This document shows positions 1 to 64,000 of a DNA stretch of 64,000 nucleotides, piece after piece. The stretch comes from Knoellia sp. Soil729 (GTDB lineage Bacteria > Actinomycetota > Actinomycetes > Actinomycetales > Dermatophilaceae): the NCBI RefSeq assembly GCF_001427985.1, contig NZ_LMSA01000005.1, forward strand, positions 1 to 64,000. Direction: 5' to 3'. Below the pieces are notes generated by a model, which was given only the letters and a program-made list of their open reading frames with translations, had not been told where the DNA came from and did not search any database. The translations under genes and the position numbers were made by a program. Within the stretch, counting starts at the first letter, position 1; every line of letters starts with the position of its first letter.

Positions 1-1
1 C

Positions 2-3978: not shown

Positions 3979-3989
3979 CGCCGAGACCT

Positions 3990-4021: not shown

Positions 4022-4028
4022 ATCCGGG

Positions 4029-23111: not shown

Positions 23112-23161
23112 CGGCATCGCAGCACCCGAACGTGGGTTTCTCACTCAATGAGGAGTACAGC

Positions 23162-24184: not shown

Positions 24185-24250
24185 GCAGAAGACCATTTCA
24201 GCGACTACGACAAGCGGTGGTCCCCCGGACCAGTTGATGGAGAAGAACAC

Positions 24251-25836: not shown

Positions 25837-25838
25837 GT

Positions 25839-26663: not shown

Positions 26664-26742
26664 CGGGCGGATGTGAGGATCCATTGCACCGAGTCTTCCT
26701 AGACTCGCTGTTGTAGTTGCACCGTATCGGAAGTAGATTCGC

Positions 26743-44442: not shown

Positions 44443-44493
44443 TGTCGACGACGCTTGAAAACGAGGCCATAGCGACGGTTGAAAACGAGGCCA
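44443..44493 (+). repeat. IS21 left end with two transposase-binding repeats
   Basis: Terminal TGTCGACGACG is followed by GCTTGAAAACGAGGCCA and, 25 bp on, GGTTGAAAACGAGGCCA. Multiple terminal repeats are normal for IS21 ends. Confidence 0.8.
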
Positions 44494-44511
44494 CCCAGAC
44501 AGATTGGATGG

Positions 44512-45729
44512 GTGATCTCAGTGGAGGATTGGGCTTTGATCCGGCGGCTGGTCGCGGACGGTGTTCCGCAACGGCAGGTCGCACGGGATCTGGGAATTGG
44601 TCGGTCAACGGTGAAGCGGGCGTTGGCCTCGCAGGGGCCGCCGAAGTATGAGCGGCCGCCAGTGGCGACGGCGTTCACGCCGTTCGAGCCGTTGGTGCGC
44701 CAGCTGCTGAAAGACCATCCGGATATGCCGGCGACGGTGATCGCGGAGCGGGTCGGCTGGACGGGGTCGATCACGTGGTTTCGTGACAACGTCCGTGCGC
44801 TGCGCCGGCAGCATCGCCGGGTCGACCCAGCGGATCGGTTGATCTGGCTGCCCGGTGACGCGGCGCAGTGCGACCTGTGGTTCCCACCGCAGAAGGTCCC
44901 GCTCGAGGACGGCACCAGGGCACTGTTGCCGGTGCTGGTGATCACCTGCGCGTACTCGCGTTTCATCCTCGCCTCGATGATCCCGACCAGACACACCGCG
45001 GACCTGCTGCTGGGGATGTGGGAGCTGCTGCAGCAGCTGGGTGCGGTTCCGCGCCGGTTGATCTGGGACAACGAGTCCGGCATCGGGCGCGGTCAGCGGC
45101 ACGCGCAAGGTGTGGGGGCGGTCACCGGCACGTTGGCGACCACCCTCCAGCGGCTCAAGCCCTACGACCCGGAATCCAAGGGCATCGTCGAGCGACGCAA
45201 CGGGTTCTTCGAAACCTCGTTCATGCCCGGACGCGACTTCGCCTCCCCAGCCGACTTCAACAACCAACTCGGGCAGTGGCTCACGATCGCCAACGGGAGG
45301 GTCGTGCGCACCACCAAGGCAAAACCCGTGGACCTGCTGGGAGCTGACCGGGCCGCGATGCTGCCCCTGCCGCCGATCGCTCCGCAGGTGGGCTGGGTCA
45401 ACCGGGTCCGGTTGGGACGCGACTACTACGTCCGCGTCGACAGCAGCGACTACTCCGTGGATCCCACCATGATCGGCCGGTTCGTGGACGTCACGGCGGA
45501 CCTGTCCCGGGTCCAGGTCCGGCACGATGGGCGCCTGGTCGCTGCGCATGACCGGGTGTGGGCGCGCGGCATGACGATCACCGACCCCGCCCACGTCGCC
45601 GCGGCCAAGGTGCTGCGGGAGCAGTACCAGCAACCCCGACCAGCACCCGATCCAGGGGAAGGGTTGGTGAGGGACCTGGCCGACTACGACCGCGCCTTCG
45701 GCCTCACCAGTGACGGCGCGGTCGCGTGA
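44512..45729 (+). CDS. istA: IS21-family transposase IstA
   Basis: A 405-residue transposase. It has an N-terminal HTH (LVADGVPQRQVARDLGIGRSTVKRALAS), the DDE integrase core with Asp in GDAAQCDLWFPP and in LIWDNESGIG, and a Glu in PYDPESKGIVERRNGFFE. The GTG at 44512 is preferred because the upstream frame runs through the terminal repeats. Its stop overlaps istB by 4 bases. Confidence 0.92.
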   Translation: MISVEDWALIRRLVADGVPQRQVARDLGIGRSTVKRALASQGPPKYERPPVATAFTPFEPLVRQLLKDHPDMPATVIAERVGWTGSITWFRDNVRALRRQHRRVDPADRLIWLPGDAAQCDLWFPPQKVPLEDGTRALLPVLVITCAYSRFILASMIPTRHTADLLLGMWELLQQLGAVPRRLIWDNESGIGRGQRHAQGVGAVTGTLATTLQRLKPYDPESKGIVERRNGFFETSFMPGRDFASPADFNNQLGQWLTIANGRVVRTTKAKPVDLLGADRAAMLPLPPIAPQVGWVNRVRLGRDYYVRVDSSDYSVDPTMIGRFVDVTADLSRVQVRHDGRLVAAHDRVWARGMTITDPAHVAAAKVLREQYQQPRPAPDPGEGLVRDLADYDRAFGLTSDGAVA

Positions 45730-46529
45730 TGGCAGCCACGACCAAGAACGACGCGACCCAGGCGCTCAAGGAGTTGAGCTACCTGGCTGGCGCGTTGAAG
45801 GCACCCCGGATCATCGAGGCAGCGGCCCGGTTGGCTGACCATGCCCGGGACGCGGGCTGGACCCATGAGGAGTACCTCGCCGCCGTCCTGGACCGCGAGG
45901 TCGCCGCCCGCAACGCCTCCGGTGCCCAGCTGCGAATCCGCGCGGCCGGGTTCGCCGCGCGCAAGACGATTGAGGAGTTCGACTGGGACGCCCAACCCGC
46001 CGTGCGCCAACAAGTCGCCTCATTGGCCTCCGGCGGGTTCCTCACCGAAGCCCGCAACGTCGTTCTCCTCGGCCCGCCCGGCACCGGCAAAACCCACTTG
46101 GCTACCGGCCTGGGCATCGCCGCCGCCCACCACGGCCACCGAGTCCTGTTCGCGACCGCGACCGACTGGGTCACCCGCTTGAGCGACGCCCACCGCGCCG
46201 GCACCCTCCCGCAAGAGCTTGCCCGGCTACGGCGCTACGGGCTGATCATCGTTGACGAAGTGGGCTACCTCCCGTTCGAGCAAGACGCAGCGAACCTGTT
46301 CTTCCAACTCGTTAGCAGCCGGTACGAACACGCCTCGCTGATCCTCACCTCCAACCTGCCATTCAGCGGCTGGGGCGGCGTGTTCGGCGACCAAGCCGTC
46401 GCCGCAGCCATGATCGACCGCGTCGTGCACCACGCCGACGTCCTCACCCTCAAAGGCGCCAGCTACCGGCTCCGCAACCGCGGCATCGACACCCTGCCCA
46501 GCATCAGAACCCAAGACGCGGCAGACTAA
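45726..46529 (+). CDS. istB: IS21-family helper ATPase IstB
   Basis: A 267-residue AAA+ ATPase of the IstB/DnaC type: Walker A GPPGTGKTHLATGLG, Walker B GLIIVDEVGYLPF, sensor region SLILTSNLPFSGWGGVFGD. It assists IstA target selection. The frame is intact, so the element may be active. Confidence 0.93.
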   Translation: MMAATTKNDATQALKELSYLAGALKAPRIIEAAARLADHARDAGWTHEEYLAAVLDREVAARNASGAQLRIRAAGFAARKTIEEFDWDAQPAVRQQVASLASGGFLTEARNVVLLGPPGTGKTHLATGLGIAAAHHGHRVLFATATDWVTRLSDAHRAGTLPQELARLRRYGLIIVDEVGYLPFEQDAANLFFQLVSSRYEHASLILTSNLPFSGWGGVFGDQAVAAAMIDRVVHHADVLTLKGASYRLRNRGIDTLPSIRTQDAAD

Positions 46530-46543
46530 ACAACACGAACCGG

Positions 46544-46594
46544 TGGCCTCGTTTTCGAGCGTCGCATCGGCCTCATTTTGGAGCGTTGCCGACA
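46544..46594 (-). repeat. IS21 right end with two transposase-binding repeats
   Basis: Read on the minus strand it matches the left end: TGTCGGCAACG, then CTCCAAAATGAGGCC and CTCGAAAACGAGGCCA. Confidence 0.8.
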
Positions 46595-46831
46595 CCGGTA
46601 TTGTCCAAACGGGATGCCGAGTGGCAGCCCAGCGTCGGTCGACCCGTAAACCTCCGTCGTCGCGAATCCGAAGCGGGACTCGAACTCTTTCCTCTCTGCG
46701 GGTAGAGGCAGCACCATTCCTAACCGCAACCGATGGACACTCTCGAGCGACTCGGGTGGACGGCGCCAAAGTATCGCGGGAATGGAGCCCATCATGTTGG
46801 TCACGGTTGCTCGTGTTTCGGCGATCTCATC
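46595..46831 (-). pseudogene. AMP-dependent acyl-CoA ligase, internal remnant
   Basis: About 79 codons from DEIAETRATVTNMMGSIPA to the A5-type motif FATTEVYGSTDAGLPLGIPFGQY, continuous with the piece at 43829 if the IS21 element is removed. The N-terminal half of the ligase is lost at the junction with the FAD dehydrogenase remnant near 46830. Confidence 0.85.
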
Positions 46832-47503
46832 GGCAAGGAGTTCACCCTCTCCGGATCCGAGCAGAACCCCGACCTCACCGGCAAGTCGGTGCGCGACGTC
46901 GTCAAGCGAGCCCGCCTCCCCGTCGCCGGCCCGGTGCAGGCCTTCCTGGACCACGGGGACGACTTCCTCGTGGCGCCCACGGTGGAGGTCCTCGTGAACA
47001 AGATGAACGCCCTCGCCACGACCGAAGGGTCCGACGCCGTCATCGACCCGGTCGCGATCCTCCAGCTCATCGAGGCACGAGACCGGCAGGTCGACAACGG
47101 CTACTCCAAGGACGCCCAGATCAGCGCGATCCACGCCTCGCGAACCTACCGAGGGGACAAGCTGACTCGCACCGCCACACCCCACAAGTTCCTCGACCCC
47201 AAGAATGGTCCGCTCATCGCGGTGCGGCTCAACATCCTCACCCGCAAGACCTTGGGCGGACTGGAGACCGACCTGTCCGGGCGCGTGCTGGGCGACGGTG
47301 GCGAGCCCATCCCCGGGCTGTATGCAGCAGGCGAAGCCTCAGGTTTCGGCGGTGGCGGAATGCACGGCTACAACTCGCTCGAGGGAACGTTCCTCGGTGG
47401 CTGCCTCTTCAGTGGCCGCACGGCGGGCGTCGTGCGGCCGAAGCCCTGTGAGCATCGTGTGACCCAGGGGTGGGCACACCCAGGAGCCCACGAGTCGATG
47501 TGA
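46826..47503 (+). pseudogene. FAD-dependent dehydrogenase, C-terminal remnant
   Basis: About 225 codons of a fumarate reductase/3-ketosteroid dehydrogenase-like flavoprotein: LIGKEFTLSGSEQNPDLTGK, KDAQISAIHASRTYRGDKLTR, LTRKTLGGLETDLSGRVLG and the FAD motif GLYAAGEASGFGGGGMHGYN. The N-terminal FAD-binding half is missing; the frame starts at the junction with the acyl-CoA ligase remnant. The end at 47503 lies 21 bases from the convergent aldo/keto reductase stop. Confidence 0.85.
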
Positions 47504-50352: not shown

Positions 50353-53300
50353 ATGAGCGCGGTACGGAGATCGGGCGAGCGATTCTCACCTCTCCCGCGC
50401 GCCGTCGCGACCCTGACCTCTCTTGCCATGGCGATCACCACCTTCGCCTACGCCCCGTCCGCCGTTGCCGCCCCTGTCCCGGCAGGACCGGCCGTGGACC
50501 AGCCGAGCGTGAGCCCGACGGACCGTCTCGCGGCGGCGATCCTGGACGAGGCTGCCGCATCGTTCCCCACCCAGCAGAGCCGCCTCATCAAGGACGTCAG
50601 GCTGCGACTCCTGGACCTCCCCGACAAGCTCACGGCCGTCGCCATGGGGACAACGGTGTATCTCGACACAGACGCCGGCGGGGCGGGCTGGTTCGTCGAC
50701 CTGAGCCCCAGCAAGGACGAGGAGTTCGCCAACGGCCTCGCCCCAGAGCTGTCCCCCGCCCACGGCAAGATGGACCTCCTCAGCGTCCTGTCCCACGAGA
50801 TGGGTCACATCGTCGGCCTCGACGACGTCAAGCCCACGCACGCAGAGCTCATGGGTGCCGAACTGCGCCCCGGCACCAGGGTGCGGAACGCGGCCAAGAC
50901 GCCCGACACCACCCGGCCTCTCGGGACGCGCGCCGGCAAGCCGTTCGCCCTGCACCTCGACGCCAGCACGACCGACACCGCCAGCACCGCCGACGGCGCC
51001 AGCACCACGGACACCGCTGCGGACACTGCCACCACGCAGCAACCTGCGACGACCGCCGCGGAGCCCTCCGGCGCGACCCCAGTCGCAGCGACGCAGACCC
51101 CGCCCGCCACGGTCGCCACCGACGAGCCGGCCCCCGTCGAGGACCCGGCGACGACGGCCGAAGCGACGCCCGCCCCAGTGGCCGAGCCACCCACGAGCGA
51201 GGAACCCCCGGCCCCGGCTGCGGTGGAGCCGGCCGCTCCGGCTTCGGACCCCACCACCGAAGAACCCGCCACCGCCGTCGCCGAGCCCAGCACGCTCGAG
51301 AAGCCGGCCGAGGCGCCAGCGGCGCCCGTCGAGGAGCCGGCCGCACCGACCGAGGAGCCGACCGCACCGACGTCCGCGGATGAGTCCGCGGCACCGCTCA
51401 TGCAGACCATGTCAGCGACCGGCCTCGTGCTCCAGACCGCACCACTGGGCAACACGGGCTCGATGAGCGAGGCGGTCTACGACCTCGGCGACGGTGACGA
51501 CGCAGCGGTGCTCGAGAACGACCCGGGCACGGCTGGCAACCTGCGCCTGCGCTCGACGAGCGGGACGTTCACCGACTCGTCGTTCGCGCGACCCACCAGC
51601 TCCCTGACCATCCAGGGCGGGAACGGCCGTGACTCGGTCACCATCTCGAGTGCCCTCAACGTGGGCGACATCCTGCTGAGGATCCTCGCCGAGCTCATCA
51701 CGGTGACCTCCGCCGGCTCCGTCACTGCGGGATCGGTGGACTTCCAGGCGGCCGACGCCAACGACCCTGCTTCCGGGCTCGGGACGCTCTCCGCCAACAT
51801 CGATGTGGCGGGCTCCATCACCGCGACAGGTGAGGTCTCACTCACCGCTCACACGACCAACTCGGGTGACGCGAGCGGTCTCCCCGTGGCGCCCGCACTG
51901 ACCCAGGGCTTCGGCTCGAGCGCGACGGTCGACGTCCGCGGGTCGGCGACGACGGTCACGGCGTCGAAGGTCACGCTGGGCGCACGCACCGACACGACGT
52001 TCACCTTCAGGGCAGACGCCGACTCGGGCGGCTCCGTCAGCCTGTCCGGCGCCAACGTCACCCGTGCGGCCGTGACGGGCGGGGCCCACATCATCTCGAC
52101 CGGCGACCTCGCGGTGTCGGCGCTCGACGACGTCACCGTGGCCATCGCGGTCACCGACACGAGCAGCCCCTCCGCGATCATCCAGGCCTTCAACCGCATC
52201 GGGGTCGACGTCGACCTCAGTCGCACGACCGGCGCGACCATCGGCGGCGCGGCTGGAGCCGACACCGTCAGCGCCGGTGGCGTCCTGACGGTCTCCGCCA
52301 GGAACACCGGCCTCGTCGACAGCGCGATCCTCTCCGAGCTGTTCGGCACGGTTCACCAGGACGCCACGAGCAACGTGATGGCCTCGATCACCGGTGCTCA
52401 GGTACAGGCGGGCTCGGTCGCCGTCAGCGCCTCGGGCGACACCGTGCAGCGGGCCGCGGCCAAGGTCGCCGTCAACGTCCTGGCCGGACTCGTCGCAGCA
52501 GCCATCAGGGACTCGCGCGTGACGAGCGGCACGGTCCTCGTGGCTGCCACCGACCGCTCCGCCCTCGAGGCCGTCTCTGCCGGCACGGCCGTCACCCCCG
52601 GCACCGCGCTCATCACCATCGCGGCCACCCGGGCCGACAACCGCATGGACCTGCCGGTCACCGCCGAGGTCGTCGACAGCACCGTCGACGCCACGGGCGG
52701 CGTGTCGGTGCTGGCCACCTCGGCTCCCAGCCTCCGGTCCCGGGTCGAGACCACGATCGTGCAGGTCTCCTCGGCCCCAGCACTCGCCGGTGCAGTGGCC
52801 CTCGCGGCCACGCTGTCGGTCAACGCCCTGGCAGGCGGAGCCCGCGCGTCGGTCGTCGACAGCACCGTCACCGGTGACGACATCGCGGTCCGGGCCGACG
52901 GCAGCGGAGCCGTGGTCGACGCCACCAGCCAGCTCAGTGCCACCAGCAAGGCCGGCGGCAGCCCGCTGTCGGCGTTCGGCGCCGGGCTCTCCATCGGCGC
53001 CAGCGTCGCCGTGAACTTCATCGGCTACACGATCAGCGACCTCGCCCTCTCCGTCTTCAGTGCCCTGATCGACGCCGACATCGCGGGGACCGCCGCCAAG
53101 CCGTTCGTCGTCGCCGCCGTCATCCGCAACAGCGTGGTCGACGCCAACGGCGATGTCACCGTCGAGGCCGTCGCCAGCCCGCTGGTCAACGCGACGGTGA
53201 GCAACGCCGCGCAGACGACCTCGGCCAACATCTTCGGATCGGCCTCCGCCGGAGCCAGCGCCGTCATCGCCTCCAACAAGGTCCTCGCCCGGGCCGAGGC

Positions 53301-56300
53301 CCTTGTCCAGGCAGCCGCCGACCACCTGGCCTCCGAGACCTCGGCCACCCTCCTCCACGGCCAGCTGGTGCGGATCGGTGTCGGACGGAGCATGCGCTAC
53401 CTCGGAGCGAACCGCAGTGCGGTCGACCTCGGCGGCATCACGTTCGCTGGCAACCCGGACTGGGCACCGGCCAGTGAGCTCCACGCCAGCGGCGACCTCA
53501 CCGTCCGCGCCACCAGCGCTGCCGGCATCTACGCCAACGTCAAGGTCGTCTCGAGCTCGGTCACCACATCCGACGGTGGCTCCCACCTCGTCATCGGCCA
53601 GTCGCAGTACGCCTCCCTCGCGGCCGACCACACGACGGCAGACGCCGCCGCCGGGACCACCACCGCCGTGGCCTTCCGCGACCGGGTCCGCATCGCCGAC
53701 GGCTTCGGCGCGGCCGACTACGTGGCTGGGACAAACGGGCCCAACCAGACGACCCTGGCGACCGGCAAGGTCGTCGCCCTCGACACGGCATACGGAACCG
53801 GTCGGCTCACGAGCGCCTCCGGCATACGGCTGCTGCGCCTCGGCGACGTCGTCACCGTCGCGGACGGCCACGCCAAGCCCGGGATCGTGGGCGCGACCTA
53901 CCGCTACATCGGGAGCAGCGCGCGCACCGACCTCGGCAGCCAGAACTTCACCGACAGGAGCCGTTGGGCGCTCGTGGGCGGCACCCCAGGAGCGGTCTAC
54001 CGCTACACGGGAACGGCGGCCACCCTCGACCTCAACAGCACGAACTACGGCGACTCGACGCTCTGGACGATGCTCGCGGGTGAGGTGGGCACCGTCTACG
54101 AGTACCTCGGACCGGTGGGTGCAGGAACGGGCACCATCGCCCTCGACCTGCGTGCGCAGGACTACGCCGACCTCGGCTCCTGGCGCAAGGTGCCGGTGAC
54201 GAGTGTGCTGCCCGCCGGCTTCAACGTCACGCAGTCCCGCTCGGCCGCACTCGGCGCGGTCATCGTGCTCAACGACGTGCGAAGCGACTCCACGGCCGCC
54301 ATCACCGGGATGCTCGTCACAGCCCGCGACGTGCTGGTCGAGGCGCTCCAGTCCGGAGTCATCCGCTCCGACGTCGACGTCACCGCGTCGTCCTCGGGTG
54401 GCAGCTCCATCACTGGCCAGGGACGCTCACTCGCCGCCGGCGGGATCATCGCCACGAACCGCGTGCTCGGCAGCGCCACCGCAACCGTCGGCGACAGCGA
54501 CGTCACCGCGCGCGACCTGCGCGTGCTCGCCTCGAACACCTCCGTCGTCGAGGCACTCAACGCCTCGGTGATGTCCTCCGGCGCGCAGTCGATCTCCATC
54601 GTCCTTGCCCTCAACACCATCGGCTGGAAGCCGACCAACCTCTTCTTCGCCGCCGTGGACGCCCTCGTCGGCAGTACCGCGATCAACTCCGCCTACTCCG
54701 GCAAGGACCCCGTGGGCGCCATCGCCCAGATCGTCGACAGCCGCATCACGGCCGGTCGCGACGTCGAGGTCCGCGCGACATCCGTGGCACAGGTGCGCTC
54801 CACCGTGACCAACAACGCCACCTCCGCACCCGCAGCGATCTTCGGGGCCAGCGGTCTGGCTGTCGCCGGCGTCCTGTCCAGCAACCGGATCGAGACCGTG
54901 GTCTCGAGCAGCGTCAAGAACGGCGCCCGGCCCAGCGACCGCACCCCCACCGGAAGCGGCTCCCTCGTCATCGGGGACCGCGTGCGCCTCAACCCCTGGA
55001 CCGTCTACGAGTTCGTCGGTGCGCCTCGAGGACCCCCAGTCAGCCTCAGCGACAGCGTGCAGCACTACGCCAGCAACGTGATGTGGCGGCTGGTGAGCAC
55101 GGTCGGCGCAGGTGGCTCGGTCACCGTGGCGTCGGCGGACCGCAGCGACATCGAGGCCACGACCTCGATCTACGGGGCGGTCAGCAAGAGCAACGATGCC
55201 GGGGCGGGCATCATCAACAACTGGGCGGGATCCGTCCTCGACGACTACCGGTTCACGAGCCGCAGCGGCACCCAGCGCGTGGCCTTCGGGGACCTGGTCC
55301 GCGTCGCCGACGACTGGAGCACCGACGCGGCGGGCAAGATCTTCCGCTACATGGGCGTCGACGGGGGCCCGGGGACCGGCATCGACCTGGGGGGCCAGGA
55401 CTACGGCGACTTCGAGCTGTGGAAGGAAGTCACGCCCACCGTCCTCGTGACGCAGCAGATGAGCCTCGCCGCTCTCACCATCGCCAGCAAGGTGACCGGC
55501 AAGCCCCTCAACGGCACCGCGCAGAGCTACTACGCCCTCCTCGCCTTCTCCCTCCTCTCCTCGAGCACGACGGCGAGCATCGCCGGCACGACCGTCGCGG
55601 CCGCCGGAGCGGTCCTCGTCAGCGCCGAGGAGGCCGCTTCGCTCTGGGCCGCGGACGACAGCGCGATGGAGGTCAGCGGGACCGGCGGCATCGTCACGAC
55701 CAACGTGCTCCTGGCCACTGCCTCGGCGAGCATCACGAACAGCAACGTCACGACGACCACGGGCGACATCACGGTCACCGCACGCAACGCCGCCGCACTC
55801 ACGGCCCACGCGGTGTCGACGATCTGGGGCATCGAGGGCAAGAGCGTCGTCCTGGCCTTCAACTCCGTCGGCTGGCAGCCGAGCAACGTCCTGTTCAACC
55901 TCGTCGAGGCCGTGCTCGGGGCCACCCCGATCTCACAGGCCTTCCGCGGCGAGACCCCGGCCATGGCGTCCGCGACGGTGACCGGCAGCGTCCTGGACGC
56001 GGCCGGAAACTTCAGCGTGACGGCATACGACGAGCTCCAGCTGGACGCGCTCGTGGGCAACGAGAACATCTCCGGCTCGGGCGCCCCCATCTTCATCGAC
56101 CGCAGCGGCGGCAAGGGCGCCCCGGCACCCAAGGTGGGCGGGTTCGGCAAGGCCGGCCTGAGCGTCGGCGGCGTCGTCGCCTCCAACAAGGTCTCGGGCG
56201 GAGCAGTCGCCACCATCACCGGCGGCACGGTCACGGCTGCTGGAGACGTCCTCGTCGAGGCGATCGACCGGTCGGCGATCATCTCGCACAGCACGGTCGT

Positions 56301-59300
56301 CCAGTCCGCGACCTCCTTGAGCTCCACCGGGGCCATCCTCTCGGCCGTGAACTCGCTGCTCTTCCCGAACGGCTACACGTACACGACCGCGTCCGGCACC
56401 CGATCGCTCGTCTCGGGCGACCGCGTGCGACTCGGGTCGTCGTATGCCGGGGGCGGCACCCCGGGCGGTATCTACCAGTTCGTGGGTGCGTCACCGATGA
56501 CGTTCACCCTGGGATCGACCGACTACGGCACCGCCAGCTGGCTCGAGGTCCACCCCGCCACCGACGTGACCGGGCTGGAGAACCTGCTGCCTGGCATCAC
56601 CGAGTTCGGGGGCCTCAATGTCCTGGCCTCCGACGCCCGCGCGATCGGGGTGCTCGTCAACGACAACGACCTCCGCTCCACCAGCACCGCTCGCCTCGAC
56701 TCGACCCTGGTCGTCGCCGGCGGCAGCGTGAGCGTGCGCGCGGTGCTCGATGCCGAGGTCGTCGCGGACGTGATGACCAACGTCAACGCCTCCGGCGGCA
56801 GCTTCTACGGCACCGGCGACGTCCTTGCCGCCAACGTCATTGCGGCGACGAACACCGTCCTTGCGGATGCCGTGGCTGCCATCGACGACTCCGCCGTGGA
56901 CGCCGTGAGCGTGCTCGTCGAGGCCGTGATGAGCTCCGGCCTCGACGCCACCGTCATGGCAACGACGACGAGCGGTGCAACCGCCGGGGCGTTGGTGCTG
57001 GCGTTCAACTCGATCGGGTGGAAGAGCCAGAACATCTTCTTCAACGCGATCGACGCGCTCCTGGGAGACCCACTGCTCTCGGACGCGTTCAACGGCAACG
57101 ACGTCGCGGAGGCGAAGGCCACCGTGACCGGCTCGGCCATCTCCGCGGACGGTGACGTGACGGTCCGGGCCGACAACGCGACCCGCCTCAACGCCACGGT
57201 GTCCAACGCGGCCGACTCCACCGCGAGCGCCCTCTTCAACGCCACCGGCAAGAGCTTCGGCGGCATCCTCGTGAGCAACAAGGCCTCGAGCGCGGCCACG
57301 GCCACCGTGGCCGACTCGACGGTCACCGCCGGTGGCGCTGTGCTCGTGCACGCGGTGGACGACACGAGCATCTTCTCGAACACCAAGATCGTCATCTCGT
57401 CGGCGAGCACCAACAACGGTGGCGCAAGCATCATCAACAGCGCACTGGGCAGCCAGTCCGTCACTCCCGACTGGATGAGCAACGAGGGCAGCCAGACCCT
57501 GCACTTCGGTGACCTGGTCCAGCTCGCTGCGGACTTCGGCTCCGCTGTCGCCACGGCCGAGGTTGACGGCACCCAGGTCGTGACGGTCGCCCCGGGCGAC
57601 GCGGTCGAGGTCGGGGACCGCTACGGCGAGGGACGGCTCACCACCGACTCCGGCATCCGCCTGCTCACCTTCGGCGACGTCGTCACGGTCGCGGACGGCT
57701 ACCTGCCCGGTGGTGACGGGGGTCGGTCCTACCGCTACCTCGGACCCAACGCGCGCCTTGACCTGTCGGTCCAGGACTACCGCGTGGCCTCGCGCTGGGC
57801 GCCCGTCTCCGGCACCCCGGGCAGCGTCTACCGCTACCTCGGCACCGCCGCTGCCGAGCTCGACCTCAACAGCACCGACTACGGCGACGGGAGCCTGTGG
57901 GAGGAGATCGGCGGCGCTGCGGGGACCACCTACGAGTGGATGGGTCCCGACGAGTCGCTCGTCGACCTCGGCACCGCGAACTACGCCGACCTCGGCTGGT
58001 GGAAGCCGGTCCCCGAGGCCACTCCCCTGCCGGAGAACTGGAACGTCACGAACTCCGACTCGATGGGCCTGGGCGGGGCCGTCGTCCTCAACGACCTGCG
58101 CACCCTCGTGAATGCGTCGATCAGCAACGGGTCCACCGTCACCGGCGCCTCCGTGGCCGTGCTGGCTCGCGGTCAGGGTGTAGTGCGGGCCACGGTCGAC
58201 TCCACCTCATCGTCGTCGGGCGGAAGCTCCTTCAACGGCCAGGGCACGTCGATGGCGGTGGGCGCCTCCATCGCGACCAACCGGATCATCAGCCACCTGA
58301 GCGCAGCCGTCGTGGACTCCGACCTCACTTCGACCGGCGGTGACATCGCGGTCGACGCCCAGAACCTCACCCAGATCGACGCCATCACCAACGCGGCGGC
58401 CATCTCGGGCGCCGACTCCGTCGGAGTCGTGGTCGCCCTCACCACCATCGGGTGGAAGGCGACGAACCTCTTCTTCGCCGCCCTCGACGCCATCATCGGT
58501 GGCCCCGTGCTGGGCCAGGCCTTTGACGGGACCGACCCGGCCAACACCGACGCGACGGTCACCAACTCCACGTTGGTCGCCACTGGATCCGTCATGGTCT
58601 CGGCCGTCAACGCCGCGCTCGTCAGCTCCGAGGTCGGCAACGACGCCACGTCGGCGCCCGCCGCAATGTTCGGAGCCGCCGGCACGAGCATGGGCGCGGT
58701 CGTGGCGAGCACCAAGATCGCGAGCTCGGCCACGGCGTCGGTCAGCACCAGTACGGTGACCGCCGGAGGCAACGCCTCCATCATCGCGAGCGACGACTCC
58801 GAGATCGAGTCCACGACCGCGATGGTGGCCGACGTGGCGCCGACGAACGACGGGAGCGCCGGCCTCATCAACCAGTGGGCCAGCGACACGATCGACGACT
58901 ACGCCTACACCAGCAACAGCGGCTCGGTCCCGGTGAAGTTCGGCACCCGCGTGCGCGTGGCCGACGACTACGACCTCGACGGTGACGGTGAGACCGACGA
59001 CACCTCCGGCAAGACCTACCAGTACATGGGCCTGGACACCTTCACCGACCTCCAGCTCGACGAGCAGGACTACGCGGACTTCGAGCTCTGGAAGGAGCTC
59101 ACGCCGACAACGGTCATCACTGACTCGTTGGGCTACGCGCTCGTCGGCAGTGCCGGGCTGATCTTCGACAAGGACGGCGCCACCGGAGACGCGCAGAGCT
59201 ACTACGGCCTCGTCGACCTCAACGACGTGCGCAGCGCCGTCACGGCCCGGGTCACGAACTCCGTGATCCACGCCGACGGTGGCATCACCGTCTCGGCCAG

Positions 59301-62300
59301 CGACACGGCATACATCACCGCCTTTGACGACAGCGTCGTCTCGGCGTTCGGCGCCAAGGGTGCCATCCTCGTCACCAACCTCATCCTCGCCAGCGCGGAC
59401 GCCCTGGTGACCAAGAGCCCACTCACGGCCGGCGGCGACATCGTCGTCACCGCCGTGCTGGCGGCCCGGCTCGATGCCACCGCGTCGAGCTCGACCGAGA
59501 CGTGGGACTCGCAGACGGTCATCGTGGCGTTCAACTCCATCGGCTGGAAGACCTCGAACTTCCTCTTCAACGCCATCGAGGCGATCCTGGGCCAACCCGT
59601 CCTCTCGGAGGGTGTCTTCAACGGGCTCGACCCGGCGCGAGCCCACGCCATCGTCACCGACAGTCCCCTGCGGGCCGGACGTGACATCACCGTCACCGCG
59701 ACCTCCCGCTCCGAGCTCATCGCGGTGTCCTCCAACGACAACACGGTCGACGGCGTCGTCGACATCGTCTTCCCCGGGGCCAGCCAGAAGGCGGACTACG
59801 ACAAGAAGAAGAAGCCCGAGGGCAAGAAGGCCAACGGCTACGGCGCCAGCGGTGCAGCCGGCGGCTACATCATCGCGAGCAACAAGGTCAACGGCGAGGC
59901 CATCGCGACGGTCACCTTCACCGGTCCCGCTCGCGGCACGGTCTCCGCCGGCCGCAACATCGCCGTGAGCGCCGCTGACAACGGAACCATCGACGCACAC
60001 AGCACGGTCATCCAGGACGTCACCGTCGCCAACACCGTCGGTGGCCTGGTCGACATCGCCAACAGCATCCTCATCCCCGGCGACTACGACTACACGACGG
60101 CGTCGGGCACCCGGGACATCAAGACCGGTGACAAGGTCCGGCTCGGTGGTGCCTATGCCGGTGGCGGCCAGGTCGGTGCCGTCTACAAGCGCACCGGGCT
60201 GGGTGGTGAGCTCGACCTCGGCGTCCAGGTCTATGACCTCGCGCACGGCTGGACGAAGGTGCTCGCCACCGACGGCAGCCTCGAGAGCCTCTTCCCGGGA
60301 ATCACCGGGTTCGCCAACCTGAACTTCACCGCCTCCGAGGCCCGCGGCGTCGGCATCATCGTGCTCTACAACGACCTGCGCAGCGAGGTGCACGCCACGG
60401 TCGATCACGCGGTCGTCACGGCGTCGGGTGGCACTCTCACCGTCTCCGCGCTGCAGAACGCCCTGCTCAAGGTGCTGGCGCTCGTCAACGTCTCGGCCCT
60501 CGGGGGCAGCTCGATCGGCAACGGCGCCACACCCGAGGACGGCCCCGACGTGTATGCCTACACCGGGCAGCTCGTGACCAACGTCGTCCTGGCGCACACC
60601 ACCGCCCTCGTCGACGACAGCCGAATCACCGCGGCTGCGCTCGCCATCGACGCGAAGTCGACCTCCGGGATCGACGCCCGCATCGAGACCTCAGCCACCT
60701 CCGGCGAGGACTCGGCTTCGGTGACCATCGCGTTCAACACGGTCGGGTGGAAGGCGCAGAACCTGCTCTTCAACATCATCGACGCCGTGCTCGGCGACCC
60801 GTTGCTCGCCACCGCCTTCAAGGGGATGGACCCGGCCTCGACCAGCGCGAAGCTCTGGGACACGACGGTGGTCCTCACCGGCGACCTGCGCGTCGTGGCC
60901 GACAACTCGGCGCAGCTCAACGCCACCGTCTCCAACACGGCGATCTCACAGGCCTCGGCCCTGTTCGGCGCCTCGGGTTCCGCCGGCGGCGGCCTGCTGG
61001 CGAGCAACAAGGTCGCGAGCGCAGCATCAGCCCTCGTCGGGTTCACGACCCGCGATGCCAGCCGGACCACGCGTGAGATCGATGCGGACGGCGCCGTGGT
61101 GGTCACCGCCACCGACTCGTCGGGCGTCTACTCCAACATCAAGCTGGTCTCCTCCTCGACGACCACCAACGATGGTGGACTGAGCATCCTCCAGCAGAGC
61201 ATCACCGGAACCCTGCCGGCCGACTTCCTCTCCAGCGAGGGTGAGGTCCGGCTCGTCTTCGGCAGCACGGTGAAGATCGCCGACGGCTACGTCGACACCG
61301 ACTGGTCGACGGACGACGGCGAGGTCGCACTCGAGAACGGCCAGAAGGTCAGTGTGGCTGCGGGATACGGCGAGGCGCGCTTCACCCAGAACTCCGGTCG
61401 CCGACTGGTGCTCACGGGAGAGGTCGTCGACGTCGACGGGACGCTCTACCGCTACACCGGCCCCAACGCCCGCATCGACCTGGGCTCGCAGGTCTACTCC
61501 ACTGGTCCGTGGGTTGTCGTCGGCGGTGAGGACGACGCGATCTACGAGTACCTCGGCCCGAGCGTCGACCTGAGCGACGAGGACGACGTGGTCGACCTGA
61601 CGCTGCAGGACTACACCGACACCACTCTCTGGCGGAAGCTGGCGGGCACGCCGGGCGACGTCTACACCTGGCTCGGCGACGATGACGGTGTCCTCGTCGA
61701 CCTCGGCACCCAGAACTACGGCGACCTCGGCTACTGGAAGCCCAACCCGCTCACCAGCATCGTGCCGGGCATCAACATCGATGAATCCGACTCCAAGGCC
61801 GTCGGCGTCGTCCTCGTCCTCAACGACGTCCGTAGCACCACCCACGCGGCCATCACCGACCTGGACCTCACTGCGGCATCGGTGGAGGTCGCGGCCCGCT
61901 CCATGGCGGTCATCCGCGCACGCACCGACGTCGACGTGACCTCCTCAGGCGGTCAGTCGTGGGGTGGAGAGGGTGACTCGATCGCCGTCGGAGCGGTCAT
62001 CGCCACCAACGTCATCCAGTCCAGTGTCATCGCAGAGGTCCTGCGGTCGGACATCGTGACCACCAGCGGCGACGTGGTCGTCGTCGCGGACGGCCTCACG
62101 CAGATCGATGCCGAGACCCTCGCGAGCATCCAGTCCGAAGGCGACTCCTACGGTCTGACCCTGGCCTTCAACACCATTGGGTGGAAGACCCAGAACTTCC
62201 TCTTCAACACCGTCGACGCCATCCTCGGCGACCCGCTGGTGGCCGAGGCGTTCGACAACAACAACCCCGCCGAGATCATCGCCCAGCTCGTCGACACGAC

Positions 62301-64000
62301 CGTCAACGCCTTCGGGGATGTCCGGGTCAACGCCACGAACGAAGGGTCCGTCACGGCGCAGGCCAGCAACGCTTCCTCCAGCGTGGTCGTGACGTTCACC
62401 AAGGCGGAGGCCTTCGCCCTCGGCTTCCTCGTCGCGAGCAACATGGTCAACCTCATGACCCGCTCCCAGATCCTCTTCAGCGGAGGCGACACGACACACA
62501 CGTACTCCAGGAGCGACCGGCCGACGACCCTCCAGAACGGCGACCAGGTCGCGGTGAGTCCGGGCGTGGTCTACCGCTGGACCGGCGGACCCCGTGCTCC
62601 CCCGACCGGATCGACGACGATCAACCTCAGCACAGAGTCCTACACCACGAACAGCAGCTGGACCCTCGTTCCCAACCTCGTCAAGGCCGGCGGCTCAGTC
62701 GCCGTCACCGCCGACGAGAGCGCGGGGATCGACGCCACGTCCACCGTCGAGGTCACCGCGTCGGCCTCCAGCACCGCTGGCATGAACATCGTCCTCGACC
62801 TGCTCACCACCCTCCTCGAGGACTACCAGTACACGACGAACTCGGGCACCCGCCTCGTCTCCAAGGGTGAGGCCGTCCGTCTCGACTCCGGCGACGTCTA
62901 CGTCTTCACGGGCTCGACGCCCACCTCGTTCGACCTGGGGGCAACGGACTTCGGCGCCTCGCCGCTCTGGGCGAAGGTCATCCTCGGCGACACCCTCGAT
63001 GCCCTCACCGCCATCGGCATCGACGTCACGGGCATCCTGGGGGCGGACGCCACCGGAGTCGGCGGCATGGTCGTGCGCAACGACGTGCGCGGGGACGTCG
63101 CCGCGACGATCGCCAACGCCAAGGTCGTGGCCGGCGACGACGTCCTCGTCTCGGCCCTCGAGTCCGCGACGATCCGCGCGGTCACGACCGGCACGGTCTC
63201 GGTCGGCGGGGGCGGGTTCATCGGCGAGGGGAGCTCCACCGCCGTCAACTTCGCGGTGGCGAGCAACGTCGTGCTGAGCGGAGCCCTCGCCTCCGTCCTC
63301 AACACGGAGGTCGATGCCGGCACCGCGGCCGACGACACGATCACGGTGACGGCGCAGAACACCAGCCTCCTCGACGCCCGGACCAAGACCTCCACCACCT
63401 CGGCCGGTGTCTCCGTGGGCGTGACGATCGCCGTCAACACGGTCGGGATCGACTCGCAGAACATCCTGTTCAACATCCTCGAGGCCATCGTCGGCGATGT
63501 CATCGACACCGAGCAGGACCGCCCGGCGAGGACCGAGGCCAGGGTCACGAGCTCCGACCTCGCCGCCGGAGGCGCCATCGCGGTGACAGCGACCTCGTCG
63601 GCGAAGATCACCTCCGAGGTCGAGGCCTCGTCGGTCTCCATTGCCAGCAGCATCGACCAGGACGTCACGTCGGTGAGCGTGGGTGTCGTGGTCTCGATGA
63701 ACCGGCTTCGTACGACGGTCAAGGCCGTCGTGGAGGGCTCCCCTTCCGTGCAGGCAGGAACGAGCGTGGCCGTGACGGCGTCCAACACCGCCTCGATCTC
63801 CTCGACCGTCACCGCCCCGACGATCTCGATCGCCATCAGCGGGCAGCAGTCCAAGAGCGTGAGCATCGGGGTGAGCATCGCCCGCAACGACGTCGGCGTG
63901 GCCATGAACGCCCTCGTCACCGCGGTCGCGGACCTCGACGCCAAGAACGGTGACGTCCTCGTCAGCGCCACCCAGGGTGCCTCGATCACGGCGACCTCGA
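50353..64000 (+). CDS. Giant secreted repeat protein with metalloprotease-like motif, 3' end outside window
   Basis: The frame is open from the ATG at 50353 to the window end: at least 4,549 residues. A signal peptide (about residues 1-40, ending AVAA) leads to a domain with HEMGHIVGLDD at residues 148-158, an HExxHxxGxxD zinc-peptidase motif, preceded by GWFVDLSP and GKMDLLSVL. A Pro/Ala/Thr/Glu-rich linker spans ~200-350. From ~376 on, beta-strand-rich Ala/Ser/Thr/Asp/Val repeats dominate, lacking Cys. Relatives are the giant beta-strand-repeat (LEPR-XLL-like) adhesin-type proteins. Units of ~1,250-1,280 residues begin at 1059, 2340 and 3592; each contains three copies of a motif around IGWK..N..FNA-D-LG. 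A Lys-rich insert (KKKKPEGKK) is at ~3152. Likely a surface adhesin or matrix protein; function not shown. Confidence 0.85.
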   Translation, partial: MSAVRRSGERFSPLPRAVATLTSLAMAITTFAYAPSAVAAPVPAGPAVDQPSVSPTDRLAAAILDEAAASFPTQQSRLIKDVRLRLLDLPDKLTAVAMGTTVYLDTDAGGAGWFVDLSPSKDEEFANGLAPELSPAHGKMDLLSVLSHEMGHIVGLDDVKPTHAELMGAELRPGTRVRNAAKTPDTTRPLGTRAGKPFALHLDASTTDTASTADGASTTDTAADTATTQQPATTAAEPSGATPVAATQTPPATVATDEPAPVEDPATTAEATPAPVAEPPTSEEPPAPAAVEPAAPASDPTTEEPATAVAEPSTLEKPAEAPAAPVEEPAAPTEEPTAPTSADESAAPLMQTMSATGLVLQTAPLGNTGSMSEAVYDLGDGDDAAVLENDPGTAGNLRLRSTSGTFTDSSFARPTSSLTIQGGNGRDSVTISSALNVGDILLRILAELITVTSAGSVTAGSVDFQAADANDPASGLGTLSANIDVAGSITATGEVSLTAHTTNSGDASGLPVAPALTQGFGSSATVDVRGSATTVTASKVTLGARTDTTFTFRADADSGGSVSLSGANVTRAAVTGGAHIISTGDLAVSALDDVTVAIAVTDTSSPSAIIQAFNRIGVDVDLSRTTGATIGGAAGADTVSAGGVLTVSARNTGLVDSAILSELFGTVHQDATSNVMASITGAQVQAGSVAVSASGDTVQRAAAKVAVNVLAGLVAAAIRDSRVTSGTVLVAATDRSALEAVSAGTAVTPGTALITIAATRADNRMDLPVTAEVVDSTVDATGGVSVLATSAPSLRSRVETTIVQVSSAPALAGAVALAATLSVNALAGGARASVVDSTVTGDDIAVRADGSGAVVDATSQLSATSKAGGSPLSAFGAGLSIGASVAVNFIGYTISDLALSVFSALIDADIAGTAAKPFVVAAVIRNSVVDANGDVTVEAVASPLVNATVSNAAQTTSANIFGSASAGASAVIASNKVLARAEALVQAAADHLASETSATLLHGQLVRIGVGRSMRYLGANRSAVDLGGITFAGNPDWAPASELHASGDLTVRATSAAGIYANVKVVSSSVTTSDGGSHLVIGQSQYASLAADHTTADAAAGTTTAVAFRDRVRIADGFGAADYVAGTNGPNQTTLATGKVVALDTAYGTGRLTSASGIRLLRLGDVVTVADGHAKPGIVGATYRYIGSSARTDLGSQNFTDRSRWALVGGTPGAVYRYTGTAATLDLNSTNYGDSTLWTMLAGEVGTVYEYLGPVGAGTGTIALDLRAQDYADLGSWRKVPVTSVLPAGFNVTQSRSAALGAVIVLNDVRSDSTAAITGMLVTARDVLVEALQSGVIRSDVDVTASSSGGSSITGQGRSLAAGGIIATNRVLGSATATVGDSDVTARDLRVLASNTSVVEALNASVMSSGAQSISIVLALNTIGWKPTNLFFAAVDALVGSTAINSAYSGKDPVGAIAQIVDSRITAGRDVEVRATSVAQVRSTVTNNATSAPAAIFGASGLAVAGVLSSNRIETVVSSSVKNGARPSDRTPTGSGSLVIGDRVRLNPWTVYEFVGAPRGPPVSLSDSVQHYASNVMWRLVSTVGAGGSVTVASADRSDIEATTSIYGAVSKSNDAGAGIINNWAGSVLDDYRFTSRSGTQRVAFGDLVRVADDWSTDAAGKIFRYMGVDGGPGTGIDLGGQDYGDFELWKEVTPTVLVTQQMSLAALTIASKVTGKPLNGTAQSYYALLAFSLLSSSTTASIAGTTVAAAGAVLVSAEEAASLWAADDSAMEVSGTGGIVTTNVLLATASASITNSNVTTTTGDITVTARNAAALTAHAVSTIWGIEGKSVVLAFNSVGWQPSNVLFNLVEAVLGATPISQAFRGETPAMASATVTGSVLDAAGNFSVTAYDELQLDALVGNENISGSGAPIFIDRSGGKGAPAPKVGGFGKAGLSVGGVVASNKVSGGAVATITGGTVTAAGDVLVEAIDRSAIISHSTVVQSATSLSSTGAILSAVNSLLFPNGYTYTTASGTRSLVSGDRVRLGSSYAGGGTPGGIYQFVGASPMTFTLGSTDYGTASWLEVHPATDVTGLENLLPGITEFGGLNVLASDARAIGVLVNDNDLRSTSTARLDSTLVVAGGSVSVRAVLDAEVVADVMTNVNASGGSFYGTGDVLAANVIAATNTVLADAVAAIDDSAVDAVSVLVEAVMSSGLDATVMATTTSGATAGALVLAFNSIGWKSQNIFFNAIDALLGDPLLSDAFNGNDVAEAKATVTGSAISADGDVTVRADNATRLNATVSNAADSTASALFNATGKSFGGILVSNKASSAATATVADSTVTAGGAVLVHAVDDTSIFSNTKIVISSASTNNGGASIINSALGSQSVTPDWMSNEGSQTLHFGDLVQLAADFGSAVATAEVDGTQVVTVAPGDAVEVGDRYGEGRLTTDSGIRLLTFGDVVTVADGYLPGGDGGRSYRYLGPNARLDLSVQDYRVASRWAPVSGTPGSVYRYLGTAAAELDLNSTDYGDGSLWEEIGGAAGTTYEWMGPDESLVDLGTANYADLGWWKPVPEATPLPENWNVTNSDSMGLGGAVVLNDLRTLVNASISNGSTVTGASVAVLARGQGVVRATVDSTSSSSGGSSFNGQGTSMAVGASIATNRIISHLSAAVVDSDLTSTGGDIAVDAQNLTQIDAITNAAAISGADSVGVVVALTTIGWKATNLFFAALDAIIGGPVLGQAFDGTDPANTDATVTNSTLVATGSVMVSAVNAALVSSEVGNDATSAPAAMFGAAGTSMGAVVASTKIASSATASVSTSTVTAGGNASIIASDDSEIESTTAMVADVAPTNDGSAGLINQWASDTIDDYAYTSNSGSVPVKFGTRVRVADDYDLDGDGETDDTSGKTYQYMGLDTFTDLQLDEQDYADFELWKELTPTTVITDSLGYALVGSAGLIFDKDGATGDAQSYYGLVDLNDVRSAVTARVTNSVIHADGGITVSASDTAYITAFDDSVVSAFGAKGAILVTNLILASADALVTKSPLTAGGDIVVTAVLAARLDATASSSTETWDSQTVIVAFNSIGWKTSNFLFNAIEAILGQPVLSEGVFNGLDPARAHAIVTDSPLRAGRDITVTATSRSELIAVSSNDNTVDGVVDIVFPGASQKADYDKKKKPEGKKANGYGASGAAGGYIIASNKVNGEAIATVTFTGPARGTVSAGRNIAVSAADNGTIDAHSTVIQDVTVANTVGGLVDIANSILIPGDYDYTTASGTRDIKTGDKVRLGGAYAGGGQVGAVYKRTGLGGELDLGVQVYDLAHGWTKVLATDGSLESLFPGITGFANLNFTASEARGVGIIVLYNDLRSEVHATVDHAVVTASGGTLTVSALQNALLKVLALVNVSALGGSSIGNGATPEDGPDVYAYTGQLVTNVVLAHTTALVDDSRITAAALAIDAKSTSGIDARIETSATSGEDSASVTIAFNTVGWKAQNLLFNIIDAVLGDPLLATAFKGMDPASTSAKLWDTTVVLTGDLRVVADNSAQLNATVSNTAISQASALFGASGSAGGGLLASNKVASAASALVGFTTRDASRTTREIDADGAVVVTATDSSGVYSNIKLVSSSTTTNDGGLSILQQSITGTLPADFLSSEGEVRLVFGSTVKIADGYVDTDWSTDDGEVALENGQKVSVAAGYGEARFTQNSGRRLVLTGEVVDVDGTLYRYTGPNARIDLGSQVYSTGPWVVVGGEDDAIYEYLGPSVDLSDEDDVVDLTLQDYTDTTLWRKLAGTPGDVYTWLGDDDGVLVDLGTQNYGDLGYWKPNPLTSIVPGINIDESDSKAVGVVLVLNDVRSTTHAAITDLDLTAASVEVAARSMAVIRARTDVDVTSSGGQSWGGEGDSIAVGAVIATNVIQSSVIAEVLRSDIVTTSGDVVVVADGLTQIDAETLASIQSEGDSYGLTLAFNTIGWKTQNFLFNTVDAILGDPLVAEAFDNNNPAEIIAQLVDTTVNAFGDVRVNATNEGSVTAQASNASSSVVVTFTKAEAFALGFLVASNMVNLMTRSQILFSGGDTTHTYSRSDRPTTLQNGDQVAVSPGVVYRWTGGPRAPPTGSTTINLSTESYTTNSSWTLVPNLVKAGGSVAVTADESAGIDATSTVEVTASASSTAGMNIVLDLLTTLLEDYQYTTNSGTRLVSKGEAVRLDSGDVYVFTGSTPTSFDLGATDFGASPLWAKVILGDTLDALTAIGIDVTGILGADATGVGGMVVRNDVRGDVAATIANAKVVAGDDVLVSALESATIRAVTTGTVSVGGGGFIGEGSSTAVNFAVASNVVLSGALASVLNTEVDAGTAADDTITVTAQNTSLLDARTKTSTTSAGVSVGVTIAVNTVGIDSQNILFNILEAIVGDVIDTEQDRPARTEARVTSSDLAAGGAIAVTATSSAKITSEVEASSVSIASSIDQDVTSVSVGVVVSMNRLRTTVKAVVEGSPSVQAGTSVAVTASNTASISSTVTAPTISIAISGQQSKSVSIGVSIARNDVGVAMNALVTAVADLDAKNGDVLVSATQGASITATS
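53527..57369 (+). repeat. Super-repeat unit 1 of the giant protein (1,281 codons)
   Basis: Starts with IYANVKVVSSS; contains the cassette RYIGSSARTDL...YRYTGTAATLDLNSTNYGD...YEYLGPV at ~53.85-54.2 kb and three subunit motifs at 54619, 55867 and 57013. Confidence 0.8.
57370..61125 (+). repeat. Super-repeat unit 2 of the giant protein (1,252 codons)
   Basis: Starts with IFSNTKIVISS; contains YRYLGPNARLDL...YRYLGTAAAELDLNSTDYGD...YEWMGPDES at ~57.7-58.0 kb and subunit motifs at 58447, 59539 and 60742. Confidence 0.8.
61126..64000 (+). repeat. Super-repeat unit 3 of the giant protein, cut by the window end
   Basis: Starts with VYSNIKLVSSS; contains YRYTGPNARIDL...YEYLGPSVDL...YTWLGDDDGVLVDL at ~61.4-61.75 kb and subunit motifs at 62176 and 63442. 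The third subunit would lie beyond the window. Confidence 0.78.

What the first reader, a model, noticed from the sequence alone, without database searches (positions are those of the whole stretch)
50353..64000. Secreted giant protein with a three-level repeat architecture
An uninterrupted frame of more than 13.6 kb codes for at least 4,549 residues. Units start at 53527, 57370 and 61126 (3,843 and 3,756 bp). Each has three subunit motifs around IGW[K/Q]..N at 54619, 55867, 57013 | 58447, 59539, 60742 | 62176, 63442; the gap from the third motif to the next unit's first is 1,434 bp both times. This shows ordered triplication of a ~400-residue subunit and then tandem duplication of the triplet. 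The subunits have diverged but keep position-specific cassettes, so each place in the triplet has its own function.
Basis: seen in the sequence. Interest (0 to 1): 0.8.

Follow-up and report, generated by a model that had tools for sequence, protein, structure and literature searches.

The report
Giant modular bacterial surface fibre
One bacterial gene of 40,000 bases encodes a giant, apparently exported protein built from repeating units whose order along the chain is shared with equally huge proteins in many other bacteria; it most likely works as a long surface fibre that grips sugars or other cells.

Summary
The frame from 50353 runs past the window to contig position 90351: 13,332 residues, 1.34 MDa. 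All eight motifs and both 1,434-bp gaps check out, and the period of three is real. The hierarchy is: a 52-residue repeat (73 copies by own HMM; a known NCBIfam repeat), units of about 270-290 residues with an IGW helix, and 0-4 inserted cassettes that set unit length. Related loci labelled with many phyla show that unit position is inherited: profiles trained on other proteins recognise the last unit in 49 of 52 proteins, the penultimate in 44, the first in 43 (chance 9.7). The window array is 'first - x - c - a - b - c - a - penultimate - last': an internal duplication inside a widespread order, not three equal triplets. A confident model shows a beta-solenoid with cassettes branching off; the cassettes weakly resemble chitin-binding modules. 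Matrixin-like domains sit at both ends. Best reading: an exported, surface-anchored giant adhesin; function is inferred.

The parts
50353..64000 (+). window part (residues 1-4549) of a 13,332-aa ORF that ends at contig C5:90351
50353..50472 (+). signal-peptide-like N-terminus (MSAVRR...AVATLTSLAMAITTFAYAPSAVAAP)
   Evidence: seen in the translation; no signal-peptide program was available
50515..50892 (+). matrixin-like zincin domain, motif HEMGHIVGLDD at 50794-50826 followed by a Met-turn-like ELMGAELRPGTR (domain limits approximate)
   Evidence: relatives found in 12 of 42 genomes; no Pfam hit for this copy
52366..64000 (+). 52-residue LktA_tand_53-type base repeats (73 copies over residues 672-7617 by own HMM, continuing past the window)
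52813..53307 (+). IGW-type unit domain, class 'first'
54442..54915 (+). IGW unit domain (b1; not placed in a supported class)
55687..56160 (+). IGW unit domain, class c
56839..57309 (+). IGW unit domain, class a
58267..58743 (+). IGW unit domain, class b
59362..59835 (+). IGW unit domain, class c
60565..61038 (+). IGW unit domain, class a
61996..62472 (+). IGW unit domain, class penultimate
63256..63732 (+). IGW unit domain, class last
53836..54210 (+). three tandem Y-Y-G..DL..DY.D..W cassettes
55309..55449 (+). cassette
   Evidence: modelled within 55240-55470
56413..56550 (+). cassette
57667..58020 (+). three tandem cassettes
58966..59118 (+). cassette
60136..60273 (+). cassette (weak, 15.2 bits)
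61435..61764 (+). three tandem cassettes
62524..62673 (+). cassette
62839..62994 (+). cassette

Best explanation
It is a giant exported fibre, most likely Sec-exported and held by a C-terminal hydrophobic segment with an arginine-rich tail, that works as an adhesin. From the cell outwards (inferred): C-terminal anchor and matrixin-like domain, Calx-beta/HYR and RTX calcium-binding block, a hydrophobic repeat zone, then the IGW zone, and an N-terminal matrixin-like domain at the tip. The 52-residue repeats stack into one long beta-solenoid; at one fixed slot in each unit the chain leaves the solenoid, folds 0-4 small cassettes that branch off, and returns. The cassettes, with conserved aromatic residues, are the most likely ligand (glycan) binders, repeated for avidity. 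Fixed first, penultimate and last units mark the ends of the cassette zone and the step into the hydrophobic zone; the middle expands or shrinks. Shown: sequence anatomy, unit order, a solenoid-plus-inserted-module model. Inferred: orientation, anchoring, glycan binding, adhesion.
For: Whole frame and domains; unit order and end units conserved; unit length rises stepwise with cassette number (median 292, 369.5, 430, 513, 610 for 0-4 cassettes, 278 units); model of one unit pLDDT 89.3, pTM 0.84, with SufB/SufD beta-helix matches (Z 12.1, rmsd 4.6, 202 aligned; Z 11.3, rmsd 3.0, 186 aligned) whose first and last aligned model residues (1 and 632-643) lie on opposite sides of the cassette block; cassette alone: chitin deacetylase C-terminal domain Z 4.5, rmsd 2.1, 47 aligned, plus three other chitin-active entries at Z 2.9-4.0; RTX, Calx-beta, HYR; more hydrophobic 19-mers after the last unit in 46 of 46 proteins; the genome of L012 has an N-terminal zincin with signal-like head and a C-terminal zincin with hydrophobic-RRRRR tail. 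Ligand modules emerging from a split host domain is a documented layout in RTX adhesins (PMC12077191, passages).
Against: No experiment. No CBM5/12 family among the 20 Pfam families that any of 85 cassettes hit at E <= 1 (one member hit CBM46 at E 0.091); no Foldseek match at E <= 0.001 for either model; the tool warns that Z under about 13 for repeats, or under 8 otherwise, may be only a common arrangement; the best cassette match is a cyanophage tail fibre, not a chitin binder. The anchor is only a hydropathy peak (19-mer mean 1.61) and stretches in the solenoid score higher, up to 2.38; no LPXTG; the C-terminal piece from the genome of L016 ends without such a hydrophobic tail. The two zincins argue that something is also cut.
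Confidence: 0.55

Rival explanations
1. Contact weapon or degradative machine: the matrixin-like domains at the two ends are active proteases delivered to other cells or polymers by the long stalk, as has been proposed for other giant bacterial proteins.
For: Zinc-binding motif kept at both ends (HEMGHIVGLDD, HELGHLLGLDH); relatives' copies reach Pfam Matrixin above cut-off in 3 of 5 scanned; weapon reading of giant genes as reported in PMC12057145 (passages).
Against: The window's N-terminal copy has D as third ligand and its C-terminal copy lacks a Met-turn; neither matched Pfam in the pieces scanned; by far most of the protein is repeat.
Confidence: 0.2
2. Structural sheath, biofilm matrix or cell-cell cohesion polymer: the hydrophobic zone after the last unit makes fibres stick to each other, and the cassettes are spacers.
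For: More hydrophobic 19-mers after the last unit in 46 of 46 proteins, and higher mean hydropathy in 44 of 46; structural matches include curli CsgA (Z 8.7, rmsd 8.2) and S-layer RsaA (Z 6.5, rmsd 4.3).
Against: Cassettes are found in 71 of 75 sequence sets with conserved aromatic residues and mostly one slot, more than spacers need.
Confidence: 0.15
3. Membrane-active toxin of the Fusobacterium leukotoxin type, since the base repeat is NCBIfam LktA_tand_53.
For: Repeat model above cut-off in the three pieces that cover residues 1-9550; hydrophobic stretches in residues 5500-7200.
Against: Shared repeat only; relatives lie in genera that are free-living or plant-associated (genera, their ecology recalled); the hydrophobic stretches coincide with base repeats and are probably solenoid strands (inference).
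Confidence: 0.08

Closest known systems
Giant proteins with the same units in Methylobacterium/Methylorubrum, Devosia, Mesorhizobium, Flexilinea flocculi and in Planctomycetota, Verrucomicrobia and other MAGs
   Same: IGW units, cassettes, unit order, giant frames (many 8,000-18,000 aa between stops); C-terminal matrixin-like domain in the same frame in 7 of the 12 genomes (of 42) with a match
   Different: window protein has a second matrixin-like domain at the N-terminus and a hydrophobic-arginine C-terminus; of the six end pieces I read, only the genome of L012 (Actinomycetes label) shows both
LktA_tand_53 filamentous repeat proteins (NCBIfam NF012206; name points to the Fusobacterium leukotoxin)
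   Same: 52-53 residue base repeat, above cut-off
   Different: IGW helix, cassettes, RTX block and end domains are not part of that 53-position model; no toxin activity known here
RTX adhesins (LapA, AhLap)
   Same: RTX and Calx-beta domains; ligand-binding modules that branch from a host domain (PMC12077191, passages)
   Different: shaft modelled as a beta-solenoid, not Ig-like extenders; N-terminus looks like a Sec signal, C-terminus like a membrane segment
Giant protein of Vibrio sp. VB16 (~8,000 aa, LEPR-XLL, RTX and serralysin domains)
   Same: giant size, RTX plus metalloprotease annotation (PMC10868602, passages)
   Different: sequence not compared here; no LEPR-XLL seen by eye in the window protein's N-terminus
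Giant1-5 of Apilactobacillus kunkeei
   Same: giant Gram-positive surface proteins, four of them with a beta-solenoid domain (PMC12863079, abstract and section 12)
   Different: Giant1-3 have alpha-helical repeats, all have an SH3b-like C-terminus; no sequence comparison made here

Membership tests
LktA_tand_53 repeat family (NF012206) | score above curated 50 bits | tested here: met
   264, 305 and 62 bits in the three pieces covering residues 1-9550; no hit in the C-terminal piece
RTX adhesin secreted by type I | RTX nonapeptide repeats | tested here: met
   PF00353, 11 stretches, E 9.2e-47
RTX adhesin secreted by type I | C-terminal type I signal, no N-terminal Sec signal | tested here: inconclusive
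   N-terminus looks like a Sec signal and C-terminus has a hydrophobic 19-mer plus Arg tail, by eye and hydropathy only
Two-partner-secretion / FHA family | N-terminal TPS (haemagglutination activity) domain | tested here: not met
   no Pfam family in residues 1-500 or 1-5000 at E <= 0.01
Matrixin (M10A) metzincin | HExxHxxGxx(H/D) and Met-turn | tested here: inconclusive
   N-terminal copy: motif with D plus Met-turn-like; C-terminal copy: motif with H, no Met-turn; Pfam above cut-off only in relatives, 3 of 5
CBM5/12 chitin-binding module (cassette) | sequence-family match | tested here: inconclusive
   no CBM5/12 family listed for 85 members at E <= 1 (filters drop weak matches)
CBM5/12 chitin-binding module (cassette) | fold | tested here: inconclusive
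   Z 4.5, rmsd 2.1, 47 aligned to 4nz4 385-432; 1ed7 TM 0.61 by target length but Foldseek E 4.0
CBM5/12 chitin-binding module (cassette) | binds chitin | not testable with these tools
   needs a binding assay
Sortase-anchored (LPXTG) surface protein | LPXTG before C-terminal hydrophobic segment | tested here: not met
   tail ...ARQPKPLLGWTLLALLVVLLPRRVRHLRRPATSRPR read by eye; the genome has 4 sortase matches

The most novel reading that the evidence does not exclude
These proteins form a distinct, multi-phylum class of giant adhesins in which every unit of the shaft has an inherited address: fixed first, penultimate and last units, an ordered c-a core that can be duplicated as a block, and one slot per unit into which glycan-binding cassettes are loaded, followed by a conserved hydrophobic self-association zone; the actinobacterial branch has a membrane-anchored end and proteases at both ends.
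Probability: 0.35. Interest if true: 0.75.

Novelty: new variant of a known kind. Interest (0 to 1): 0.56.

Why it matters
Repeat proteins are usually thought to be made of interchangeable units that homogenise within a species (recalled). Here single units keep their identity by position across proteins from loci labelled with many phyla, which makes giant adhesins comparable unit by unit and gives a testable rule (fixed ends, expandable middle, loadable cassette slot) for how megadalton surface fibres evolve and may change ligand range. It also places one of these giants in a genus whose eight other held genomes lack it.

Tried and rejected
Assembly artefact or collapsed repeat: judged unlikely (no exact repeat >= 25 nt; segments 26-47% identical). 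Long antisense ORFs (2,634 aa and open on the minus strand) show that open frames are cheap at this GC, so coding rests on third-position GC (0.917) and homology, not on openness. FHA/two-partner secretion: no TPS domain in Pfam. LPXTG anchoring: no motif although the genome has 4 sortase matches. Spread inside the genus: 0 of 8 other congeners and 0 of 395 other genomes of a sample of the phylum have the units, although six loci carry actinobacterial labels (L012, L013, L015, L016, L047, L085). PDB by sequence: no hit for the unit profile or the N-terminal domain; the cassette profile gave one tectonin chain, E 0.0055, on a short YRY.G stretch, judged chance. Foldseek found nothing at E <= 0.001 for either model. 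Self-BLAST of the whole protein listed no off-diagonal rows, reason not found; redone with a sub-range it gave long low-identity alignments that I did not use. Congener flanks: the aldo/keto reductase and RibD-like flank genes exist in congeners, but in G006, where both lie on one contig, about a megabase apart, so no simple empty site was found. Paper searches listed no paper that I recognised as describing the IGW units or the cassette; only open PMC papers are searched and most were seen as listings.

Full report
WHAT IS THERE. The window is the first 64,000 bases of a 159,041-base contig of a 3.6-Mb genome. Read on in that contig, the gene ends at C5:90351: 13,332 residues, 1.34 MDa, pI 4.4. 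Third codon positions are 91.7% GC and the gene contains no exact repeat of 25 nt or longer, so it is very probably a coding gene and not a product of mis-assembled repeats.

REPEAT LEVELS. Motif-to-motif segments are most alike at steps of three (823, 928, 684, 653, 663, 462), against 198-436 for other-phase pairs that leave out the last segment; exceptions are 301 for the step-three pair 2699-3942 and 95-162 for every pair with the last segment. It is the known NCBIfam repeat LktA_tand_53, above its cut-off in the three pieces that cover residues 1-9550 and absent from the C-terminal piece. In the IGW zone the spacing of base repeats recurs in sets of four (about 62, 95, 49, then a long gap). 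The long gap holds the cassette 'GDxVR...GxxYxYxG...DL..DY.D..W': 19 copies in the protein and 642 in 71 of 75 sequence sets, the window being one of the 75. Over 278 units of the window protein and its relatives, median unit length is 292, 369.5, 430, 513 and 610 for 0, 1, 2, 3 and 4 cassettes. In the window the counts are 1,1,3,1,1,3,2, which is most of what makes the three phases differ in length.

RELATIVES. One scan of genome contigs gave 74 loci labelled Actinomycetes, Alpha-, Beta-, Gamma- and Deltaproteobacteria, Planctomycetota, Verrucomicrobia, Chloroflexi-type Anaerolineae, Cyanobacteria and others (the list was cut at the best 80 matches; many are MAGs, so labels are provisional, and the placing of genera in phyla is partly recalled). 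The 42 of these genomes that I searched again hold the unit, many in stop-to-stop frames of 8,000-18,000 aa, the longest listed 18,251 aa in Flexilinea flocculi. In contrast 0 of 8 other held genomes of the window's genus and 0 of 395 other genomes of a sample of its phylum have it, though six loci with actinobacterial labels were found by the wider scan. An IS21 element (44479-46529) with truncated gene pieces on both sides lies just upstream, and two flank genes that congeners share are about a megabase apart in G006. The gene therefore looks acquired, or kept by very few. The organism is probably an actinobacterium (closest unit copies, four sortase matches, IS21 matches on Microbacterium, Frondihabitans and Rhodococcus plasmids, but also on Pseudomonas plasmids); this is inference.

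POSITION HAS ANCESTRY. In a tree of 398 unit domains the last units form one clade (support 0.995): 52 of its 59 tips are labelled last, and it holds 52 of all 56 'last' labels; label changes 11, against at least 48 in 300 shuffles and at least 46 when labels were shuffled inside proteins. First units are less clean (20 changes, against at least 34 in both controls). Classes named from window copies give strings such as F.cabcapL (window), FbcabcapL (L016, a Solirubrobacterales MAG), Fbca~ca.L (L017, Pirellulaceae), F.capL and F.ca.L (several Alphaproteobacteria). All 54 neighbouring pairs among a, b and c follow the b-c-a-b order (39 of them are c-a), shuffled mean 24.5, maximum 37 in 2,000 shuffles; 22 of 26 penultimate-class units are followed directly by a last-class unit. 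Limits: class clades were chosen around window copies, supports of p, a, b and c are 0.857-0.932, eleven loci bear Methylobacterium or Methylorubrum names and so are not independent, many units of other proteins fall in no class, and so does window unit b1. A test without a tree, with profiles trained on other proteins and with positional equivalents of 60% identity or more left out, picks the true last unit in 49 of 52 proteins, the penultimate in 44 and the first in 43, chance 9.7 each; the window (one of the 52) is right in all three, narrowly for the penultimate (-5.5 against -8.6). So the window array is a fixed-end array whose middle was duplicated.

STRUCTURE. One a-unit (residues 3405-4047, alignment of 85) was modelled at pLDDT 89.3 and pTM 0.84. 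Foldseek against the PDB found nothing at E <= 0.001. A second alignment of its candidates gave the SufB/SufD beta-helix at Z 12.1 (rmsd 4.6, 202 aligned) and Z 11.3 (rmsd 3.0, 186 aligned); the first and last aligned model residues lie on opposite sides of the cassette block (about 206-395 of the model), which fits a continuous solenoid from which the cassettes branch. The tool warns that for repeats a Z under about 13 may be only a common arrangement. A single cassette model (pLDDT 82.1, pTM 0.67) matches a cyanophage tail fibre best (Z 4.8, rmsd 3.6, 58 aligned), then the C-terminal domains of Vibrio chitin deacetylases (4nz4 385-432: Z 4.5, rmsd 2.1, 47 aligned), and further down GbpA (Z 4.0), a Chromobacterium chitinase (3.4) and Serratia ChiB (2.9); the ChiA1 chitin-binding domain appears (E 4.0). 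That the matched ranges other than ChiA1 are CBM5/12-type or similar chitin-binding domains is recalled. It remains a lead: no CBM5/12 family in Pfam for 85 cassettes at E <= 1.

ENDS AND ZONES. Residues 1-40 look like a signal peptide. Residues 148-158 read HEMGHIVGLDD with a Met-turn-like LMGAELRPGTR; residues from 13,184 read HELGHLLGLDH without one. In relatives the same domain reaches Pfam Matrixin above cut-off in 3 of 5 pieces scanned. The N-terminal query matched 12 of 42 genomes, the C-terminal one 7 of 42; in 7 of the 12 the match lies in the same frame as the units, and in these seven C-terminal to them. In the genome of L012 an N-terminal version with a signal-like head and a C-terminal version with a hydrophobic stretch and RRRRR are present on separate contigs; the C-terminal piece from the genome of L016 lacks such a tail, and the three proteobacterial-label ends read have none. 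So the double-ended form may mark an actinobacterial branch, on thin evidence. After the units, the share of hydrophobic 19-mers rises in 46 of 46 proteins with enough sequence (mean 0.0006 before, 0.0166 after; some rises are very small), and mean hydropathy rises in 44 of 46. Further on come RTX repeats (11 stretches), HYR and Calx-beta.

HOW IT PROBABLY WORKS. The best reading is a secreted, C-terminally held fibre: calcium-stabilised base, hydrophobic zone, solenoid shaft with branching ligand modules, protease-like tip. Emergence of ligand-binding modules from a split host domain is the layout described for RTX adhesins (PMC12077191, passages seen); giant Gram-positive surface proteins with beta-solenoid domains are known in Apilactobacillus (PMC12863079, abstract and section 12 read); an 8,000-residue giant with RTX and serralysin domains is mentioned in Vibrio (PMC10868602, passages seen). 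The step from shape to adhesion, the ligand, the anchoring and any protease activity are inferred.

VERDICT. The protein belongs to a widespread set of giants built on a known repeat; I recognised no description of its units or cassettes in the listings of my searches of open papers. It is a variant with matrixin-like domains at both ends.

Noticed in passing
window 43829-47503: An IS21 IstA/IstB pair (44479-46529) sits between a truncated AMP-binding enzyme end (43829-44608) and a C-terminal fragment of an FAD-binding enzyme (46733-47503): a decayed insertion region just upstream of the giant gene.
   Followed up: partly
window 23132-27732: GC falls to 0.58 and 0.55 (24-28 kb) over a run of ABC-transporter genes (NMT1/THI5-like binding proteins, ATPase, two permeases), against 0.64-0.66 in the neighbouring 2-kb bins.
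   Followed up: partly
window 12690-14615: Phenol-hydroxylase-type flavin monooxygenase (FAD_binding_3 plus Phe_hydrox_dim).
   Followed up: no
L005 15605-16402 (contig C5 65605-66402, beyond the window): By eye, a different inserted domain of about 80-100 residues seems to occur three times in a row between base repeats (residues about 5085-5350); no Pfam family was found in that piece.
   Followed up: no
L069: A Verrucomicrobiales MAG has eight units spaced 265-268 residues with no cassette detected, apparently the bare form of the unit.
   Followed up: partly
L021 (Flexilinea flocculi): The unit lies in an open frame of 18,251 residues.
   Followed up: no
L007 1158-1967 (contig C5 91158-91967): Small DUF6299-like gene near the giant gene; in congeners G006 and G007 its homologous stretch lies on the other side of the RibD-like gene, about 5 and 8 kb away.
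   Followed up: partly
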